Shown: one piece after another, positions 1 to 6,193 of the stretch
Position numbering within the stretch: position 1 is the stretch's first letter
Layout: each line of letters opens with the position of its first letter
Notes under the pieces: model-generated
What the model was told of the DNA's origin: nothing
The model's input: the letters and a program-made list of their open reading frames with translations, nothing else
Database searches by the model: none
Made by a program: the position numbers and the translations under genes
Assembly: GCF_024055725.1 (NCBI RefSeq)
Contig: NZ_JAMXMX010000011.1
Location: 62,001 to 126,000, forward strand
DNA: 64,000 nucleotides
Source: Actinoallomurus spadix
GTDB taxonomy: Bacteria > Actinomycetota > Actinomycetes > Streptosporangiales > Streptosporangiaceae
Direction of reading: 5' to 3'

Positions 1-1110
1 CTGCGATGGTGGCGGATCGTCGTCGCGCGGCGGGCTCCAGGCCCGCCATCCGGGGTGGCCGAACAGCGTCGGGAAGGGGGCGGCCATGGTCAGCTGCCGC
101 CAGCCGGTGCGCAGCCGGCCGGGCGTGTCGGCGGGCCCGGTGAACAGCCCGACCAGCCCCGCGCCGCTGAGCAGTGGGGTGGCCTCCCATGCCGTGGACC
201 GGAGGAGACCCGGGGCCGGTGGCCAGGGATCGCCGTCCATCGCCGAGCCGAACCAGGGAGTGTCGCAGGCCCGATGCCAGTGCGCGGTCCCGTCGATCAC
301 CTTGACGCCGGCGGCCAGCCGTCCGCGCCGGCGGTCGAGGATCGGAACGTCCAGGTGCACGTGGAGACGCCGCAGCCGCGCCGGCGCCACCGCGGCCAGC
401 GCCGCCGCGCCGAACCCGCCGCCGTCGCCGAGCACCCCGTGCGCTCCGGTGAACGCGAGCGCCTCGTCGACGGCGTGCCGCAGGGCCCGCCGCAGCACCT
501 CGTGCGGGTCGGTGGGACGCCCGGTGATCCGCCGCGCCTGGTCGGCCAGGTCGGCGAGGTCGAACTCGTCCAGGGTAAGGCGCTCCCGGCCGCCCGACGT
601 GCCGAGCGTCGTGCCGCAGGCCAGCTGGAAGATCCCCTCGTACGGCGTGAGCGGCATCGGCAGGGTCTCGCCGGCCAGCGACGCCGCGACGGCGGCCGGC
701 CACATCGCGGACCGGGGGCCGGCCAGGTCTGCCAGGTCGGTCGAGAAGCGGACCAGCCGCTCGTCCGGGCCGGGACCGTCGGTGACCTCGTAGTACAGCC
801 GCGTCTGCGACAGCGCGCCCCTGCCGAGCGTGCCGGTGGCCGGGTCGGCCCACGTCTGCGCGAGCCGCCCCGCGGAGGCGAACGGGCCCACCACCACCGG
901 GGCGGACTCCGTCTCCGAACCCGCCGGTGGGACGTGGCGCCCACCGCACGAGCAGACCGTCTCGACCAGCATTCGCGCGGACGTGAACGTGCCGGCGAGA
1001 CCGACGGGCGCGCCGCCCGCGGTGCAGCCGACGGCGCGTACGCCGGGCGCGGCATCGGCCGGCGGACCCGACCGGAGGGCTGAATCGGGCGTGTCACTCC
1101 GTCTTCCCAC
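1..1110 (-). CDS. Asparagine-synthetase-like (lasso-cyclase-like) protein, 3' end cut by window edge
   Basis: About 370 residues are visible, starting at GTG 1110, which has GGGG six bases upstream and a stop codon immediately in frame before it. The middle reads like the substrate-gating part of class II asparagine synthetases and lasso-peptide cyclases: a display-type segment, then TPYEGIFQLACG near residue 155, matching the TPFEGI..LPPG region. Where the family has the ATP-pyrophosphatase loop SGGLDSS, this protein has GVLGDGGGFGAA near residue 222, so the PPi-binding Ser and Asp are missing. No N-terminal glutaminase Cys2 is present. It lies divergently from an ABC exporter and near a small Cys-rich peptide, so I infer a maturation or carrier role in peptide biosynthesis. 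The fold assignment is moderate; whether it is catalytically active is doubtful. Confidence 0.6.
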   Translation of the reverse strand, partial: MGRRSDTPDSALRSGPPADAAPGVRAVGCTAGGAPVGLAGTFTSARMLVETVCSCGGRHVPPAGSETESAPVVVGPFASAGRLAQTWADPATGTLGRGALSQTRLYYEVTDGPGPDERLVRFSTDLADLAGPRSAMWPAAVAASLAGETLPMPLTPYEGIFQLACGTTLGTSGGRERLTLDEFDLADLADQARRITGRPTDPHEVLRRALRHAVDEALAFTGAHGVLGDGGGFGAAALAAVAPARLRRLHVHLDVPILDRRRGRLAAGVKVIDGTAHWHRACDTPWFGSAMDGDPWPPAPGLLRSTAWEATPLLSGAGLVGLFTGPADTPGRLRTGWRQLTMAAPFPTLFGHPGWRAWSPPRDDDPPPSQ

Positions 1111-1361
1111 TGATCACCCCACAACGCTAAGAACCAATGGAAATGCGACTAAGACGTACCCTCGAGTCCGATCACCTCGAATACTCGGCCGCCTTCCCGG
1201 ATGCTCCACGAGCCGACCTTACCAAGGTAAAACACCGATGCCGAGACGCCGACCGTATTGCCCGGGATTGCCATTTTTGAGGCGCTCGTTATTCACGCCC
1301 TCACCATGACAGACTCCTGATTGGGAAAGACGCCGGGCAGGGCGCGGAGAAAGGCGGCACC
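1111..1361. promoter_or_regulatory. Divergent intergenic promoter region of the peptide locus
   Basis: This 251-base spacer separates the divergent asparagine-synthetase-like gene and the ABC exporter. It is clearly richer in A and T than the flanks, notably around 1121-1165 and 1255-1325, as expected of promoters. A purine-rich ribosome site, GGAGAAAGG, sits seven bases before the ATG at 1362. I could not fix a convincing pair of -35 and -10 boxes for either direction. Confidence 0.45.
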
Positions 1362-3188
1362 ATGACGATCGGGGATCAGCGGCGAAATCTTGCTGAATTG
1401 CGGCAATTGCTGAGCTTCGGAGTCATCCTCGCCTGGCGGGCCGACCGCCGAAGAGTGAGCATCGTCCTGCTCCTGCAGATCGGCCAGGCGATGGGAGTCG
1501 GCGGCATGCTCCTCGCCGTGCGCGGCGTGGCCGGCGGCCTGCTCGCCGGCCACGGGAGCGACGACGTCTCCCGGGCGGCCGTCTCCGCCCTCGTCGTGAT
1601 GGCGCTGGCCCTCGTCAACAGCACCCTGAACATCGTCGGCCTCACGCATCAGTCGATCCTCCGCGTCGGCATCGAGCGCGACGCCGTGGAGGCGGTGACC
1701 TCGGCCACGGCGCGCACGGACCTGCTGGAGTTCGAAGAGCCCGGGTTCCACGACCGCGTCAGGCTCGCGCTCGCGGCCGCGCAGGTCCACGCGCCGAACC
1801 TCCCGTTCACGGTGATGACGGTGACGCGGACCGCGCTGACACTGGTGACGGTGGTGATCGCGCTCATCGCCATGGCCTGGTGGCTGCTGCCGCTGCTCCT
1901 CGTCGCGGCCCTCCCGTCCATCCGCGTGGCGCTGCTCCAGCAGCGCGCCCACTTCGACCTGCAGCGACGGCTCACCGAGAACCAGCGCACCGCCGGATAC
2001 CTCACCCAGCTGCTCACCGGCCGGGATGAGGCCAAGGAGCTCCGCGCGTTCGGCCTGGGCCGTACGTTCTTCGACCGGCTTACCGCCTGCTACGACCGCA
2101 CGCTGGAGGCCGAGGTCGCCTTCCGGCGCAGGTTCCTCTGGAAGGAGATCCGGGCGCGCCTGGCCGGGCACGCGGTCGCGGCCGCCGCCGTGGGCGGCCT
2201 GCTCCTCGCCGCGGTCACCGGGGTCGTCGACGCCCCGACCGCGCTGACGGCGCTCGGCGGCCTGCTCGTCGGCGTCCAGCAGGGCATCATGATCACCTCG
2301 GTCCTGCGGGCCTCCGGCGACTCCCTGCGCTACCTGCGGGAGCTGCGGCGTTTCACCGCCGAGGTCACCGGCCCGCCCGCACCGCCCATGGCCACGCGCC
2401 GGTCGTTCGGGATCCTGACCGCGCGGAACCTCTCCTTCGCCTACCCCGGCGCCGCCCGGCCCGCGGTGGACGGGGTGTCACTCGACCTGCGCCCCGGCGA
2501 GGTCGTCGCGCTCGTCGGGGAGAACGGCTCGGGCAAGACCACGCTGACGAAGCTGCTGACCGGCCTGTACTCCCCCGGCTCCGGCACCCTCCTGGTGGAC
2601 GGGGTACCCGCCATGGCGGCCGAGCTGCGCGCCCTGTCCACCGTGCTCTTCCAGGATTATCTGCGCTACAAGCTCTCCGTCGCGGAGAACATCGCGCTCG
2701 GCGACCCGGCGTTCCTGGGCGACCGGGGCAGGCTGCTGGAGGCCGCGCGGCGCGCCGGCGCGGCGCGAATCGTCGCCGACCTGCCGGACGGGTACGACAC
2801 GCGCCTCGGCGCCGAGTTCACCGGCGGCACCGACCTGTCACTCGGGCAGTGGCAGCGCATCGCGCTGGCCAGGGCGTTCTTCCGGCAGGCGCCGTTCGTC
2901 GTGCTGGACGAGCCGACCGCGGCGATGGACGCCCGCGCGGAGGCCGACCTGTTCGCCCGCATGCGGGAGCTGTTCGCCGAGCGGGCGGTGCTGTTGATCT
3001 CGCACCGCTTCTCGAGCGTCCGCTCCGCCGACCGGATCCACGTCCTGCGCCGGGGACGGGTCGTCGAGGCCGGCACCCACGACGAGCTGATGGCGGCGGA
3101 CGGGATCTACGCCGAGTCCTTCCGCCTCCAGGCCGCCGCGTACCTCGACGAGCCGGTGCCGCGCCCACCGTCGGCCAGACCCGCCTGA
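1362..3188 (+). CDS. ABC exporter, fused membrane and ATPase domains (peptide export type)
   Basis: This 608-residue half-transporter has a six-helix membrane domain over roughly residues 1-320 and a nucleotide-binding domain over 345-590. Visible motifs are Walker A GENGSGKTT, a signature LSLGQWQRI, Walker B FVVLDEPTAAMD and the H-loop ISHRFSS. There is no N-terminal C39 peptidase domain, so leader removal must come from another protein; an S26 signal peptidase is encoded next door. The start is set by GGAGAAAGG upstream of ATG 1362. The last 82 bases overlap the 3' end of the convergent S26 gene. Together with the second exporter (3706-5538, minus strand) it probably forms the export and immunity machinery, perhaps a heterodimer. 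Substrate is inferred from context only. Confidence 0.9.
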   Translation: MTIGDQRRNLAELRQLLSFGVILAWRADRRRVSIVLLLQIGQAMGVGGMLLAVRGVAGGLLAGHGSDDVSRAAVSALVVMALALVNSTLNIVGLTHQSILRVGIERDAVEAVTSATARTDLLEFEEPGFHDRVRLALAAAQVHAPNLPFTVMTVTRTALTLVTVVIALIAMAWWLLPLLLVAALPSIRVALLQQRAHFDLQRRLTENQRTAGYLTQLLTGRDEAKELRAFGLGRTFFDRLTACYDRTLEAEVAFRRRFLWKEIRARLAGHAVAAAAVGGLLLAAVTGVVDAPTALTALGGLLVGVQQGIMITSVLRASGDSLRYLRELRRFTAEVTGPPAPPMATRRSFGILTARNLSFAYPGAARPAVDGVSLDLRPGEVVALVGENGSGKTTLTKLLTGLYSPGSGTLLVDGVPAMAAELRALSTVLFQDYLRYKLSVAENIALGDPAFLGDRGRLLEAARRAGAARIVADLPDGYDTRLGAEFTGGTDLSLGQWQRIALARAFFRQAPFVVLDEPTAAMDARAEADLFARMRELFAERAVLLISHRFSSVRSADRIHVLRRGRVVEAGTHDELMAADGIYAESFRLQAAAYLDEPVPRPPSARPA

Positions 3189-3709
3189 GGCGCGCCGTGG
3201 CCGCCCGCCCCGACGTGGCCCGCCCCGCCGCCCTCGGCGACGCGGCCTGTACCGCCGCCCTCCGAGCCGAAACGGCGCACCGCCACGCCGACGACCCGGG
3301 CGCGGGGCAGGAAGCCGTAGTGCCGGGAGTCCCAGCTGGCCGCGCGGTTGTCGCCGAGTACGACCAGCGAGCCGGGCGGCACCACGGCACCGGCGATCCC
3401 CTGGACGTCGGGATCCGCCCAGGCGGCGGGCAGACGGTCGCCCGGCACCGCGACCACCCGCTTGATGAGGTATTGCCGGTCGCGCCCTGGCGGAGGGACC
3501 TTCCCGCTCGGCAGGTCGGGGTACTCGAAGACGACGAGCACGCCGGGCCGCACCCGTCGCGTCCTGCGGACCAGCACCCGGTCCCCCGGCCGGAGCGCCG
3601 GTTCCATGCTCGTGCCGTCCACCGTCGTGACCAGGAGGCCGAGGCGGATCGCGAGGACCGCCGCGACCACGGCCAGGACCGGTGCGGTGACCGCGAGGAC
3701 GAGGCTCAT
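3107..3709 (-). CDS. S26 family signal peptidase, probable leader peptidase
   Basis: A 200-residue membrane-anchored serine protease. One N-terminal transmembrane helix (residues 3-27) is followed by GTSMEPAL with the nucleophile Ser34, then KRVVAVPGD with the general base Lys83, then the box GDNRAASWDSRHYG. All signal-peptidase-I boxes are present. The ATG at 3709 overlaps the stop of the upstream exporter as ATGA, so the two are translationally coupled. The Gly-rich C-terminus runs 82 bases into the convergent exporter gene at 3107-3188. A dedicated copy inside a peptide locus suggests it removes the leader of the precursor at 5612-5776, which has an Ala-Ser-Ala motif just before the first Cys. 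General secretory cleavage is the alternative. Confidence 0.88.
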   Translation of the reverse strand: MSLVLAVTAPVLAVVAAVLAIRLGLLVTTVDGTSMEPALRPGDRVLVRRTRRVRPGVLVVFEYPDLPSGKVPPPGRDRQYLIKRVVAVPGDRLPAAWADPDVQGIAGAVVPPGSLVVLGDNRAASWDSRHYGFLPRARVVGVAVRRFGSEGGGTGRVAEGGGAGHVGAGGHGAPQAGLADGGRGTGSSRYAAAWRRKDSA

Positions 3710-5538
3710 CCGGCCTCCCGGTATCCGTCCGCCTGCAGGCGGAACAGCCGGGCGTAGTCGCCTCCGGCGGCGAGCAACGCGTCGTGGGTCCCCTGTTCGG
3801 CGATCCGGCCGCCGGCCAGCACCACGATGCGGTCGGCGTCGCGTACGGCGCTGAGGCGATGGGAGATCAGCAGGCTCGTCCGGCCCGCGCGGTACTCCCG
3901 CATGCGGGTGTGGACCTCGTGTTCGGCCTCCGGGTCCAGGCCGGAGCTCGGCTCGTCCAGGATCATCAGGTCCCGGTCGCCGCGCACGAACGCGCGGGCC
4001 AGCGCCAGGCGCTGCCACTGCCCGCCGGACAGGACGACGCCCGTCACCGGGTCCTCCTTGTCCGCCCCGATGAGGTACATGCGGGTGAGCGGGGTATCGT
4101 ACCCGCGCGGCAGCTCGGCGAGCCGGTCGTGGATCCCCGCCCGCTTGGCCGCTCCCTCGAGGCGGCCGGTGTCGTCCAGTGCGGTCAGATCGCCCAGGCC
4201 GATGTTCTCGCCCGCCGTCATGTCGTACTTCATGTGGTCCTGGAAGACCGCGCTGATGCGGTCGCGCAGCGCGGCGGGCGGGATGTCCCGCAGGTCCGCG
4301 CCGTCCCAGAGGATGCGTCCCCGCGTCGGGTCGTACATCCGGCACAGCAGTTTGACCAGGGTGCTCTTGCCCGCGCCGTTCAGGCCGACGAGGGCGACGG
4401 CGTGACCGTACGGGATCGTCAGGTTCACCCCGCGGAGCACCCAGGGGTGGTCGTCGCCGTACCGGAACCAGACGTCGCGCAGTTCGATGCCCTGCCGCAG
4501 CCGGGGCGCGCCGCCCCGTTCCGCGCGTGGCAGGTCCGGTTCGGCCCGGACGACCGCGACGTAGTGGGTGAAGGCGAGGAGCCGCGCCTGGCCGCCGGCG
4601 ATCGCCGAGGTCAGCGCGGCGAGTGCGGCCTGCACTCCGATGACGGCCGCGAGGAACATCGACACGTCGCCGACGCTCAGCCGCCCCTCGTGTGCGGCCG
4701 TGATCGCCCACCACAGGCCGACCCCGGCGACGAGCGCGCTCAGTGCCGTCAGCCCGCCCTGCGCGCGCAGTTCCCGGCGGTCCATCCGTTCGTGGGCGGC
4801 GTCGGCCCGGCGCCGTTCGTCGATCATCCGGGCGCGCAGGAACGCTCCGATGCCGAAGAGCCGGATCTCCGTCGCCGCGGCCACGCCGGTGAGCAGCTGC
4901 CCGTAGAAGTACTCCCGCCGGTAGTACTGCTCGACGGCCCATTCCATCGCGGACCGCCGCCGGGACAGGATCAGCTCGGCGACGAGCGCGGGAAGGGCGG
5001 CCAGGAGCACCAGGACCGTCATGGCCGGGCTGAGGATCAGCAGGGATCCGATGAAGCCGGAGAGTGAGAGCATGCCGCCGATCGCTCCGCCGAGGCCGTC
5101 GACGAGTTCGGCGACGCGCCCGGTGCCCTCCTGCGCGAGCCGGAGCCGGTCGAGGAAGGCGGGGTCCTCGAAGGGGCGCAGGCCGACCTGGTTCTCGGCC
5201 GCGGCGAACAGCCGCTCGGTGGCGATCCGGCCGGCGGACCGGCCGATCCGCGCTCGCAGGTACCGGACCGACACGGGCAGCGCCGCGGCGACCAGGCCGG
5301 TCACGATCATGCCGAGAGCCGGGCCGGCCACCGTGCCGTGCGGGGCCGTCAGCCGGTCGATGACCACCTTGGTCAGCCACGCGGTGGCGATCGGCGCCGC
5401 GGCGGACGCCAGGGTCATGACGAGGAACACCAGGAGGTCGCCGGTGGCCGCGTGCCACAGGAGCGAGATCGCCTCGGCCGCCGACGCGCGCAGCTCACGC
5501 AGCCCGACCCGTCGATCCTCTTCCGGGGGCACGCTCAC
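3706..5538 (-). CDS. ABC exporter, fused membrane and ATPase domains, second copy
   Basis: A 610-residue half-transporter: membrane domain about residues 20-330, ATPase domain about 350-600. Motifs are Walker A GLNGAGKST, Q-loop VFQDHMKYD, signature LSGGQWQRL, Walker B LMILDEPSSGLD and H-loop ISHRLSA. A roughly 15-residue insertion (around YLIGADKEDPVTG) precedes the signature and is unusual. No peptidase domain is present. It stands between the precursor peptide gene (upstream) and the S26 peptidase (downstream, ATGA overlap), so precursor, exporter and peptidase form one minus-strand operon. Export of the mature peptide is the likely job. Confidence 0.9.
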   Translation of the reverse strand: MSVPPEEDRRVGLRELRASAAEAISLLWHAATGDLLVFLVMTLASAAAPIATAWLTKVVIDRLTAPHGTVAGPALGMIVTGLVAAALPVSVRYLRARIGRSAGRIATERLFAAAENQVGLRPFEDPAFLDRLRLAQEGTGRVAELVDGLGGAIGGMLSLSGFIGSLLILSPAMTVLVLLAALPALVAELILSRRRSAMEWAVEQYYRREYFYGQLLTGVAAATEIRLFGIGAFLRARMIDERRRADAAHERMDRRELRAQGGLTALSALVAGVGLWWAITAAHEGRLSVGDVSMFLAAVIGVQAALAALTSAIAGGQARLLAFTHYVAVVRAEPDLPRAERGGAPRLRQGIELRDVWFRYGDDHPWVLRGVNLTIPYGHAVALVGLNGAGKSTLVKLLCRMYDPTRGRILWDGADLRDIPPAALRDRISAVFQDHMKYDMTAGENIGLGDLTALDDTGRLEGAAKRAGIHDRLAELPRGYDTPLTRMYLIGADKEDPVTGVVLSGGQWQRLALARAFVRGDRDLMILDEPSSGLDPEAEHEVHTRMREYRAGRTSLLISHRLSAVRDADRIVVLAGGRIAEQGTHDALLAAGGDYARLFRLQADGYREAG

Positions 5539-5611
5539 AGGACCACGTCTCTCTCAGGGGCCGCACGGGCGACGGCACGGCGCCGCCGCCCGGCGGTATC
5601 CGGTCGTCTCG

Positions 5612-5776
5612 TCAGCAGGTGCTACGGACCTTGCTCCACTCGCAGCCGGTCTGCGGGCAGCAGAAGCGGTACCAGTAGCCGGGGTGGCCGTTGGCGTTGC
5701 AGAAGTAGCCGCCGCTGCAGGCGGACGCGGTCGCCTTCGGAGCGAGTCTGTCGATGATCCGGTCGATGAAACGCAT
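5612..5776 (-). CDS. Cysteine-rich RiPP-like precursor peptide
   Basis: A 54-residue peptide. I chose the ATG at 5776 because GGAG lies nine bases before it; an upstream in-frame ATG at 5791 would add five residues but has no ribosome site, and a longer reading from 5875 is less likely. The first 19 residues are an amphipathic basic leader (MRFIDRIIDRLAPKATASA) ending in Ala-Ser-Ala, a signal-peptidase-type site. The remaining 35 residues start with Cys and hold six cysteines at mature positions 1, 7, 20, 21, 26 and 35, with an aromatic run GYWYRF in the middle. No Asp or Glu lies at positions 7-9, which argues against a lasso ring, and no lanthionine synthetase is visible in the window. Three disulfides or thioether links are possible. 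I do not recognise a named family. Confidence 0.7.
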   Translation of the reverse strand: MRFIDRIIDRLAPKATASACSGGYFCNANGHPGYWYRFCCPQTGCEWSKVRSTC

Positions 5777-6193
5777 CTTCTGGTTCTCCATTCGAACGTG
5801 GGGGCCGAGCATTTCGGGCTGAACGTCGAACACTTCATCGTGTGGAGCGCGCGTTTCACACAGGTACGGCCTCACGACCCTTCGTGGCAGCGCATTTCCG
5901 GAGAATGCGGATAAGGAACCGTCGTCGGTCGGCGACGGCCGGGCCCAGCGCCATGATCATCTAAGGCGGATCAAAGATCAACACCTCTGACCCGTTTTCA
6001 CCGCCGGGGGAACAGCAGGGGCGGCGGCATGCCCATACGCCGTCCCGCCGGCCGGGCGAGTACCCGCGCCGATGCCGCGCGCCGCTCCGGTGACGAGGAC
6101 GCGACGCCCGCGCGGCGCCGCCGGGTCGCTCGGTCGTCGCATGGACCAGAGCAACACCGCCGTTCGCGGAACGCCCTCCGCCGGGGACGCGCG
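5777..6193. other. Intergenic stretch with possible SDR gene remnant
   Basis: About 400 bases without a convincing gene. The part next to the peptide gene (5800-5990) is A/T-richer and presumably holds its promoter. On the minus strand, about 6160 down to 6080, one frame reads GRRVLVTGAARGIGA, which is the N-terminal nucleotide-binding motif of a short-chain dehydrogenase, but the similarity ends there and no ORF follows. I take it as a vestige, not a gene. Confidence 0.3.

What the first reader, a model, noticed from the sequence alone, without database searches (positions are those of the whole stretch)
1..5791. Candidate RiPP-like locus with a six-cysteine peptide and no recognised modifying enzyme
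A 54-residue precursor (Cys at mature positions 1, 7, 20, 21, 26, 35) is followed on the same strand by an ABC exporter and an S26 signal peptidase, and lies near a divergent exporter and an asparagine-synthetase-like protein. Within the window there is no LanM, LanB, radical SAM or YcaO enzyme. The core lacks an acidic residue at positions 7-9, so it is not a usual lasso peptide despite the cyclase-like gene. This combination is not one I recognise.
Basis: partly seen in the sequence, partly recalled or inferred. Interest (0 to 1): 0.82.

Follow-up and report, generated by a model that had tools for sequence, protein, structure and literature searches.

The report
Exported disulfide-rich peptide gene cassette
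This is a real small gene for a probably secreted peptide with six cysteines, part of a widespread but little-studied family in actinobacteria that appears to be exported, trimmed and locked with disulfide bonds by its own dedicated machinery.

Summary
The 54-residue ORF (window 5612-5776, minus) is a real gene with homologs up to 83% identical. It heads an operon with an ABC exporter and an S26 signal peptidase. Relatives also carry a thioredoxin-like (TlpA) gene, and often MauE, between precursor and exporter. Of 33 listed close exporter orthologs in 341 family genomes, 31 were read in context; all 31 have a Cys-rich precursor. Of the 30 besides the window, all have TlpA and S26, and 18 have MauE. 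In the window's genome a MauE-TlpA pair sits alone on another contig, so the cassette looks split.

More distant cassettes, some on Streptomyces and Embleya plasmids, keep the leader but have hypervariable cores; 89 of 91 collected ORFs have an even number of cysteines. This points to disulfides, and to ABC export followed by S26 cleavage (inferred).

The second exporter and the "asparagine-synthetase-like" gene belong to a separate, rare operon, which in a same-genus relative lies away from the peptide cassette. No test supported the synthetase label. The Cys order C-C-CC-C-C suggests a knottin-like core, unproven. decRiPPter (2020) flagged mauE clusters with cysteine-rich precursors; my searches found no description of this cassette.

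The parts
5612..5776 (-). Precursor peptide gene, 54 aa: leader MRFIDRIIDRLAPKATASA (5720-5776), six-Cys core of 35 aa (5615-5719), stop 5612-5614
   Evidence: ATG with GGAG about 9 bases upstream (by inspection); homologs share the leader and all six Cys
3706..5538 (-). ABC2: one-piece ABC exporter (transmembrane plus ATPase), no C39 peptidase domain reported
   Evidence: Pfam PF00005 105 bits; PF00664 17.7 bits, under its cut-off; orthologs of at least 69% identity sit beside Cys-rich precursors
3107..3709 (-). S26 type I signal peptidase, one N-terminal hydrophobic segment; its last ~27 residues overlap the end of ABC1 on the other strand
   Evidence: Pfam PF10502 91 bits; TIGR02227 82.5 bits; C-terminal end
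1362..3188 (+). ABC1: exporter of the separate neighbouring operon, not of the peptide cassette
   Evidence: 80% identical to the syntenic gene in G008, where no peptide cassette is adjacent
1..1110 (-).

Best explanation
The precursor gene, ABC2 and S26 are a secretion and maturation cassette for a small disulfide-rich peptide. Proposed steps: (1) the precursor is made with a 19-residue charged, amphipathic leader that does not look like a Sec signal; (2) the cognate ABC exporter recognises the leader and carries the peptide across the membrane; (3) the dedicated S26 signal peptidase cuts after A-S-A outside the cell, releasing a 35-residue core starting at Cys1; (4) thioredoxin-like TlpA and MauE (here encoded on contig C3) oxidise the six Cys into three disulfides, possibly as a knottin-like C-C-CC-C-C scaffold; (5) the product acts outside, most likely as a bacteriocin-like antagonist. 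Shown: the genes, their conservation, the leader and cleavage-site pattern, Cys parity, and the split cassette. Inferred: every biochemical step, the disulfide pairing and the function.
For: Homologs with invariant six Cys and leader residues D5, R6, R10 in 36 chosen rows. 31 of 31 readable close-ortholog loci have a Cys-rich precursor; of the 30 besides the window, TlpA 30, S26 30, MauE 18 (query proteins taken from L049 and L042). 40 more distant exporter loci: TlpA 38, S26 36, MauE 31, a pattern-matching Cys-rich ORF in 24. In the 36 aligned precursors the leader ends in A, V or G at -3 and A at -1 (by inspection), the -3/-1 pattern of type I signal peptidases (recalled rule). 89 of 91 ORFs have an even Cys number (that scan itself requires [AVG]-x-A and at least three Cys). 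Leader's best 9-residue hydropathy 0.46 against 3.31 for the S26 N-terminal segment. MauE of L042 scores 106 bits to Pfam MauE; cassette TlpA has a CxxC by inspection, RefSeq calls one TlpA, and the C11 copy matches AhpC-TSA above cut-off. MauE and TlpA lie on C3:189502-190541 without exporter. DoxX plus thioredoxin proteins are the proposed disulfide formers in a class I lasso cluster (PMC7168211, passages).
Against: The window cassette itself lacks TlpA, alone among the 31 loci, and MauE. The close-type TlpA has only a weak Pfam match (E 0.017). Not every precursor homolog has a close exporter: of the 40 loci first fetched, 30 do; L050, L059, L065 and L075 have S26 but no exporter match, L061 a partial one, L062 and L074 lie at contig ends, and L077, L079 and L080 have exporters of 47-55% identity. 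No structure, mass or activity is known. The single-sequence fold of the core is weak (pLDDT 65.6) and its best PDB match has E 2.4. One 5-Cys duplicate (L078) breaks parity; the other odd ORF (L114, 3 Cys) looks like a chance match. Sequences are related, so the counts are not independent.
Confidence: 0.72

Rival explanations
1. The whole stretch is one hybrid cluster: the neighbouring operon (574-aa protein, RRE-like B protein, MauE-thioredoxin fusion, transglutaminase-like protein, S9 peptidase, ABC1) modifies or oxidises the six-Cys peptide, replacing the missing TlpA/MauE.
For: Physical adjacency. The window cassette lacks its own TlpA/MauE while the neighbour carries a MauE-thioredoxin fusion. 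The B-like protein of the operon resembles actinodefensin-associated protein B (27.7 bits here, 38.1 in G008; cut-off 45), a family tied by name to six-Cys peptides.
Against: In G008 the same operon stands without the cassette and the cassette without the operon. The operon's 574-aa protein was found in 3 of 341 family genomes, own included, and in none of the 40 loci around precursor homologs. A MauE-TlpA pair exists on C3.
Confidence: 0.13
2. The core is crosslinked by a chemistry other than disulfides (thioether, lanthionine or similar) by an enzyme encoded elsewhere.
For: Conserved Cys and a leader-core layout typical of RiPPs.
Against: No such enzyme among the 17 neighbouring ORFs scanned; the rest of the genome was not searched for one. 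Even Cys numbers in 89 of 91 ORFs and TlpA/MauE partners fit disulfides.
Confidence: 0.06
3. The peptide is exported and Cys-rich but serves signalling, metal binding or cell-surface structure rather than antagonism.
For: I did not look for or identify an immunity gene, and no activity is known. Some relatives have 8 to 12 Cys.
Against: Hypervariable cores, tandem copies (six at L117) and patchy spread, including plasmids, resemble bacteriocin or toxin repertoires.
Confidence: 0.09

Closest known systems
decRiPPter candidate families with mauE (and mauD) in Streptomyces (PMC7794033, passages)
   Same: mauE, in one family also mauD, beside a Cys-rich precursor; suggested there to act on the precursor
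   Different: Reported precursors have at least 8 Cys; 'S26' and 'signal peptidase' do not occur in its main text; its supplementary table was not readable here, so identity with this cassette is likely but unproven
Class I lasso peptides (humidimycin/siamycin type, PMC7168211, passages)
   Same: DoxX-family protein plus thioredoxin-domain protein proposed as disulfide formers in an actinobacterial RiPP cluster
   Different: Those have cyclase, RRE and B2 protease and a macrolactam; the cassette here has none, and the core lacks the acidic acceptor
Actifensin / actinodefensins (PMC6989792, passages)
   Same: Actinobacterial six-Cys exported peptide with ABC transporters; the neighbouring operon's B-like protein resembles actinodefensin-associated protein B
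   Different: Different Cys pattern and leader (conserved G-x-E before the mature peptide); 'signal peptidase' and 'thioredoxin' do not occur in that paper's main text
Inhibitor-cystine-knot peptides (knottins)
   Same: Cys order C-C-CC-C-C; a review calls the motif prevalent in all kingdoms of life (PMC13352647, passage)
   Different: Loop 2 (12 residues here, 9 in many relatives) is longer than the recalled consensus; pairing unknown; no significant sequence or fold match

Membership tests
Lanthipeptide | Lanthionine synthetase (LanM, LanB/LanC, LanKC) in the cluster | tested here: not met
   None among 17 distinct ORFs of the window's left end, its left flank and the next three large genes to the right, by Pfam; the rest of the window was not scanned
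Lasso peptide | Macrolactam acceptor Asp/Glu at core position 7-9 | tested here: not met
   Core from Cys1: C7, N8, A9; the only acidic residue is E27
Lasso peptide | Asparagine-synthetase-like cyclase | tested here: not met
   No Pfam Asn_synthase, no relevant PDB profile match, hhalign probability about 0.1% against two AsnB and against a presumed lasso cyclase. Low power: three sequences only; structure prediction useless (pLDDT 29.7)
Lasso peptide | B2 cysteine protease with catalytic Cys and His | tested here: inconclusive
   Transglut_core3 below cut-off. By inspection of the alignment with a family member the expected Cys and His positions (recalled) hold other residues, but hhalign gives no support for the alignment
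Actinodefensin system | NF038044 actinodefensin-associated protein B above cut-off (neighbour operon) | tested here: not met
   27.7 bits here, 38.1 in G008, 29.7 in G029; cut-off 45
Actinodefensin system | CS-alpha-beta cysteine pattern in the peptide (recalled: CxxxC and CxC) | tested here: not met
   Loops 5, 12, 0, 4, 8
Inhibitor cystine knot | Cys order C-C-CC-C-C with consensus loop lengths (recalled) | tested here: inconclusive
   Order met by the window core and in 44 of 69 six-Cys ORFs; loop 2 of the window core is 12, longer than recalled
Inhibitor cystine knot | 1-4, 2-5, 3-6 disulfide pairing | not testable with these tools
   Needs the mature peptide; single-sequence model of low confidence
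C39 double-glycine bacteriocins | ABC exporter with C39 peptidase domain and GG-type leader | tested here: not met
   No C39 domain reported in ABC2; leader ends A-S-A; separate S26 peptidase
decRiPPter mauE candidate families | mauE in cluster with precursor of at least 8 Cys | tested here: inconclusive
   18 of 30 close and 31 of 40 distant loci have MauE; window precursor has 6 Cys; no direct sequence comparison possible

The most novel reading that the evidence does not exclude
The window peptide is one member of a large, undescribed class of hypervariable, knottin-like secreted bacterial peptides, diversified like venom or defensin repertoires and matured by a new route: ABC export with a conserved leader, cleavage by a dedicated type I signal peptidase, and oxidation by a TlpA-MauE pair. 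In this genome the redox half works in trans from another locus.
Probability: 0.45. Interest if true: 0.78.

Novelty: new variant of a known kind. Interest (0 to 1): 0.58.

Why it matters
If right, up to half of the genomes examined in this family (172 of 341 by a loose exporter threshold) may carry exporters of this type with genetically encoded, variable disulfide-rich peptides that enzyme-based RiPP searches could miss because no classical signature enzyme is present. It offers a compact, testable system: one leader, one exporter, one peptidase and two redox proteins handling many scaffolds. That would be useful for antimicrobial discovery and for making disulfide-rich peptides in bacteria.

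Tried and rejected
Rejected: chance ORF; lasso peptide and asparagine synthetase; a precursor of the neighbouring operon hidden between window 1110 and 1362, where no shared reading frame was evident (by inspection). Led nowhere: plasmid tblastn with the precursor and with the 574-aa protein (none); viral contigs (none confirmed); precursor HMM in 396 phylum genomes, only the own hit and one weak hit not followed up; NF038044 in 178 phylum genomes, 0 over cut-off, three weak hits besides the own one not followed up; PDB profile searches; fold of the 370-residue fragment, pLDDT 29.7.

Limits: the exporter search scored three candidates per genome and printed a cut list, so ortholog counts are lower bounds. 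Two of the 33 close orthologs lie at contig ends and were not read in context. The 30 other loci had been fetched through precursor hits; that they coincide with the exporter list was seen afterwards. Nine precursors from those loci (L051, L067, L073, L075, L077, L080, the second of L078, both of L079) were left out of the 36-row alignment as near-duplicates or too divergent, so its invariance holds for the chosen rows. Weak or short hits of neighbour proteins to relatives' loci (B-like protein in many, S9 peptidase in L063, a regulator in L065; the 574-aa protein at 40-44 bits in L108 and L116) were taken as chance or low complexity. Literature searches cover only the held open-access library; I read passages of four papers and listings of the rest.

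Full report
The gene. The ORF at window 5612-5776 (minus) encodes MRFIDRIIDRLAPKATASA followed by a 35-residue core with Cys at 1, 7, 20, 21, 26 and 35. A GGAG motif lies about 9 bases before the ATG. An upstream in-frame ATG ending at 5791 would add five residues, but most relatives start at about the same place as the shorter form. Searched in 341 genomes of the same family (own included), it has 20 matches at E 7e-37 to 5e-18, followed by a tail of weaker ones; 104 genomes match at E 0.1 or better, many of them probably noise. In 36 aligned precursors, chosen from those found, the six Cys, D5, R6, R10 and the Ala ending the leader are invariant.

The operon. Downstream on the same strand lie ABC2 (3706-5538) and S26 (3107-3709), with domains confirmed. 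I fetched 40 loci around homologs and found the usual order precursor - (MauE) - TlpA - ABC - S26. A separate exporter search listed 33 orthologs of at least 69% identity, own included. 31 could be read in context, and all 31 have a Cys-rich precursor; one, L073, has eight Cys. Of the 30 other than the window, 30 have TlpA, 30 S26 and 18 MauE. The other ten fetched loci are less regular: L050, L059, L065 and L075 have S26 but no exporter match, L061 a partial exporter, L062 and L074 end at contig ends, and L077, L079 and L080 have exporters of 47-55% identity. The window cassette has neither TlpA nor MauE between precursor and exporter: only 73 bases separate them.

A split cassette. The genome carries a MauE-TlpA pair on contig C3 (189502-190541), 58-59% identical to cassette proteins, with no exporter or S26 match and no precursor recognised in the 14 kb read. 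A second, more distant cassette lies on contig C11, with two TlpA-like genes, its own six-Cys precursor, an ABC 52% identical to ABC2, and S26, but no MauE match. The redox half for the window peptide therefore probably acts in trans; this is inference.

The wider family. Forty exporters of 53-63% identity were read in context: TlpA in 38, S26 in 36, MauE in 31, a pattern-matching Cys-rich ORF in 24. Two of these loci (L102, L110) have neither TlpA nor S26, and no precursor was found there. A plasmid search with TlpA matched 27 records (24 Streptomyces, 2 Embleya, 1 Nonomuraea). I opened five. In three Streptomyces plasmids exporter and S26 are annotated next to a 'hypothetical protein' that reads as a Cys-rich precursor. 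In the unannotated Embleya record L136 the cassette was found by tblastn, with a core sharing 28 of 31 residues with that of L059. The unannotated Nonomuraea record L137 has the other genes, but the scan found no precursor. One locus (L117) has six precursors in tandem.

Cys parity. Over 87 loci the pattern scan collected 91 ORFs; 89 have an even Cys count, 69 of them six. The two odd ones are a five-Cys duplicate and a probable chance ORF. A scan without the A/V/G-x-A requirement gave 84 ORFs, 78 even; five of its six odd ones lack the leader and look like chance matches. Parity and the TlpA/MauE partners argue for disulfides. The small residue at -3 and Ala at -1 before the core, the dedicated S26 and the low hydropathy of the leader argue for ABC export followed by signal-peptidase cleavage. 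These are inferences from sequence.

The fold. 45 of 69 six-Cys ORFs carry an adjacent Cys pair, 44 of them in the order C-C-CC-C-C, the order of inhibitor cystine knots (recalled). Loop 2 is long and pairing is unknown. PDB profile search gave nothing relevant and Foldseek nothing significant (best E 2.4, a sea-anemone peptide); the single-sequence model is weak. I hold the knottin reading at about even odds.

The neighbours. The leftmost gene continues 615 bases beyond the window and heads an operon of five genes: a 574-aa protein of no known family, a B-like protein resembling actinodefensin-associated protein B below its cut-off, a MauE-thioredoxin fusion, a transglutaminase-like protein below cut-off, and an S9 peptidase. 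With ABC1 it recurs in G008, and in part in G029, out of 341 genomes. In G008 it stands without the peptide cassette, which lies on another contig. The window's S26 overlaps ABC1's end by 82 bases. Its similarity to relatives ends by residue 175 of 200 in 32 of 39 of them, while 7 matches reach residue 189-200. This is a weak hint of a recent juxtaposition. Asparagine-synthetase similarity was not detected by Pfam, NCBIfam, PDB profiles or profile comparison; with three sequences these tests cannot exclude a very remote relationship.

What is known. decRiPPter (PMC7794033, passages read) listed three candidate families with mauE, one with mauD, and precursors of at least eight Cys in Streptomyces, which those passages do not characterise further; this cassette probably belongs to that kind. 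DoxX plus thioredoxin is the proposed disulfide pair in humidimycin (PMC7168211, passages). Actifensin (PMC6989792, passages) is a six-Cys defensin with different machinery. Ten library searches found no description of the ABC-S26-TlpA-MauE cassette.

Verdict. I rate it a new variant of a known kind (exported disulfide-rich bacterial peptide), interest 0.58.

Noticed in passing
L117 (G208:C28:346855-358651): Six different Cys-rich precursors in tandem before one exporter cassette, an unusually large repertoire.
   Followed up: partly
L163:5043-8918 (G000:C11): A second cassette in the same genome with two TlpA-like genes and a six-Cys precursor of a different pattern.
   Followed up: partly
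L158:6503-7542 (G000:C3): MauE-TlpA pair between a HAD-type hydrolase gene and a gene that looks like metH (labels from inspection), with no exporter beside it.
   Followed up: yes
window 1-1110 and L009:13098-19110: Rare operon (3 of 341 family genomes) of a 574-aa orphan protein, a B-like protein near the actinodefensin-associated B family, a MauE-thioredoxin fusion, a transglutaminase-like protein lacking the expected Cys/His, and an S9 peptidase; its substrate was not found.
   Followed up: partly
L136:4870-5025 (Embleya plasmid NZ_CP108777.1): Core sharing 28 of 31 residues with that of a genome in another bacterial family (L059), suggesting horizontal transfer.
   Followed up: no
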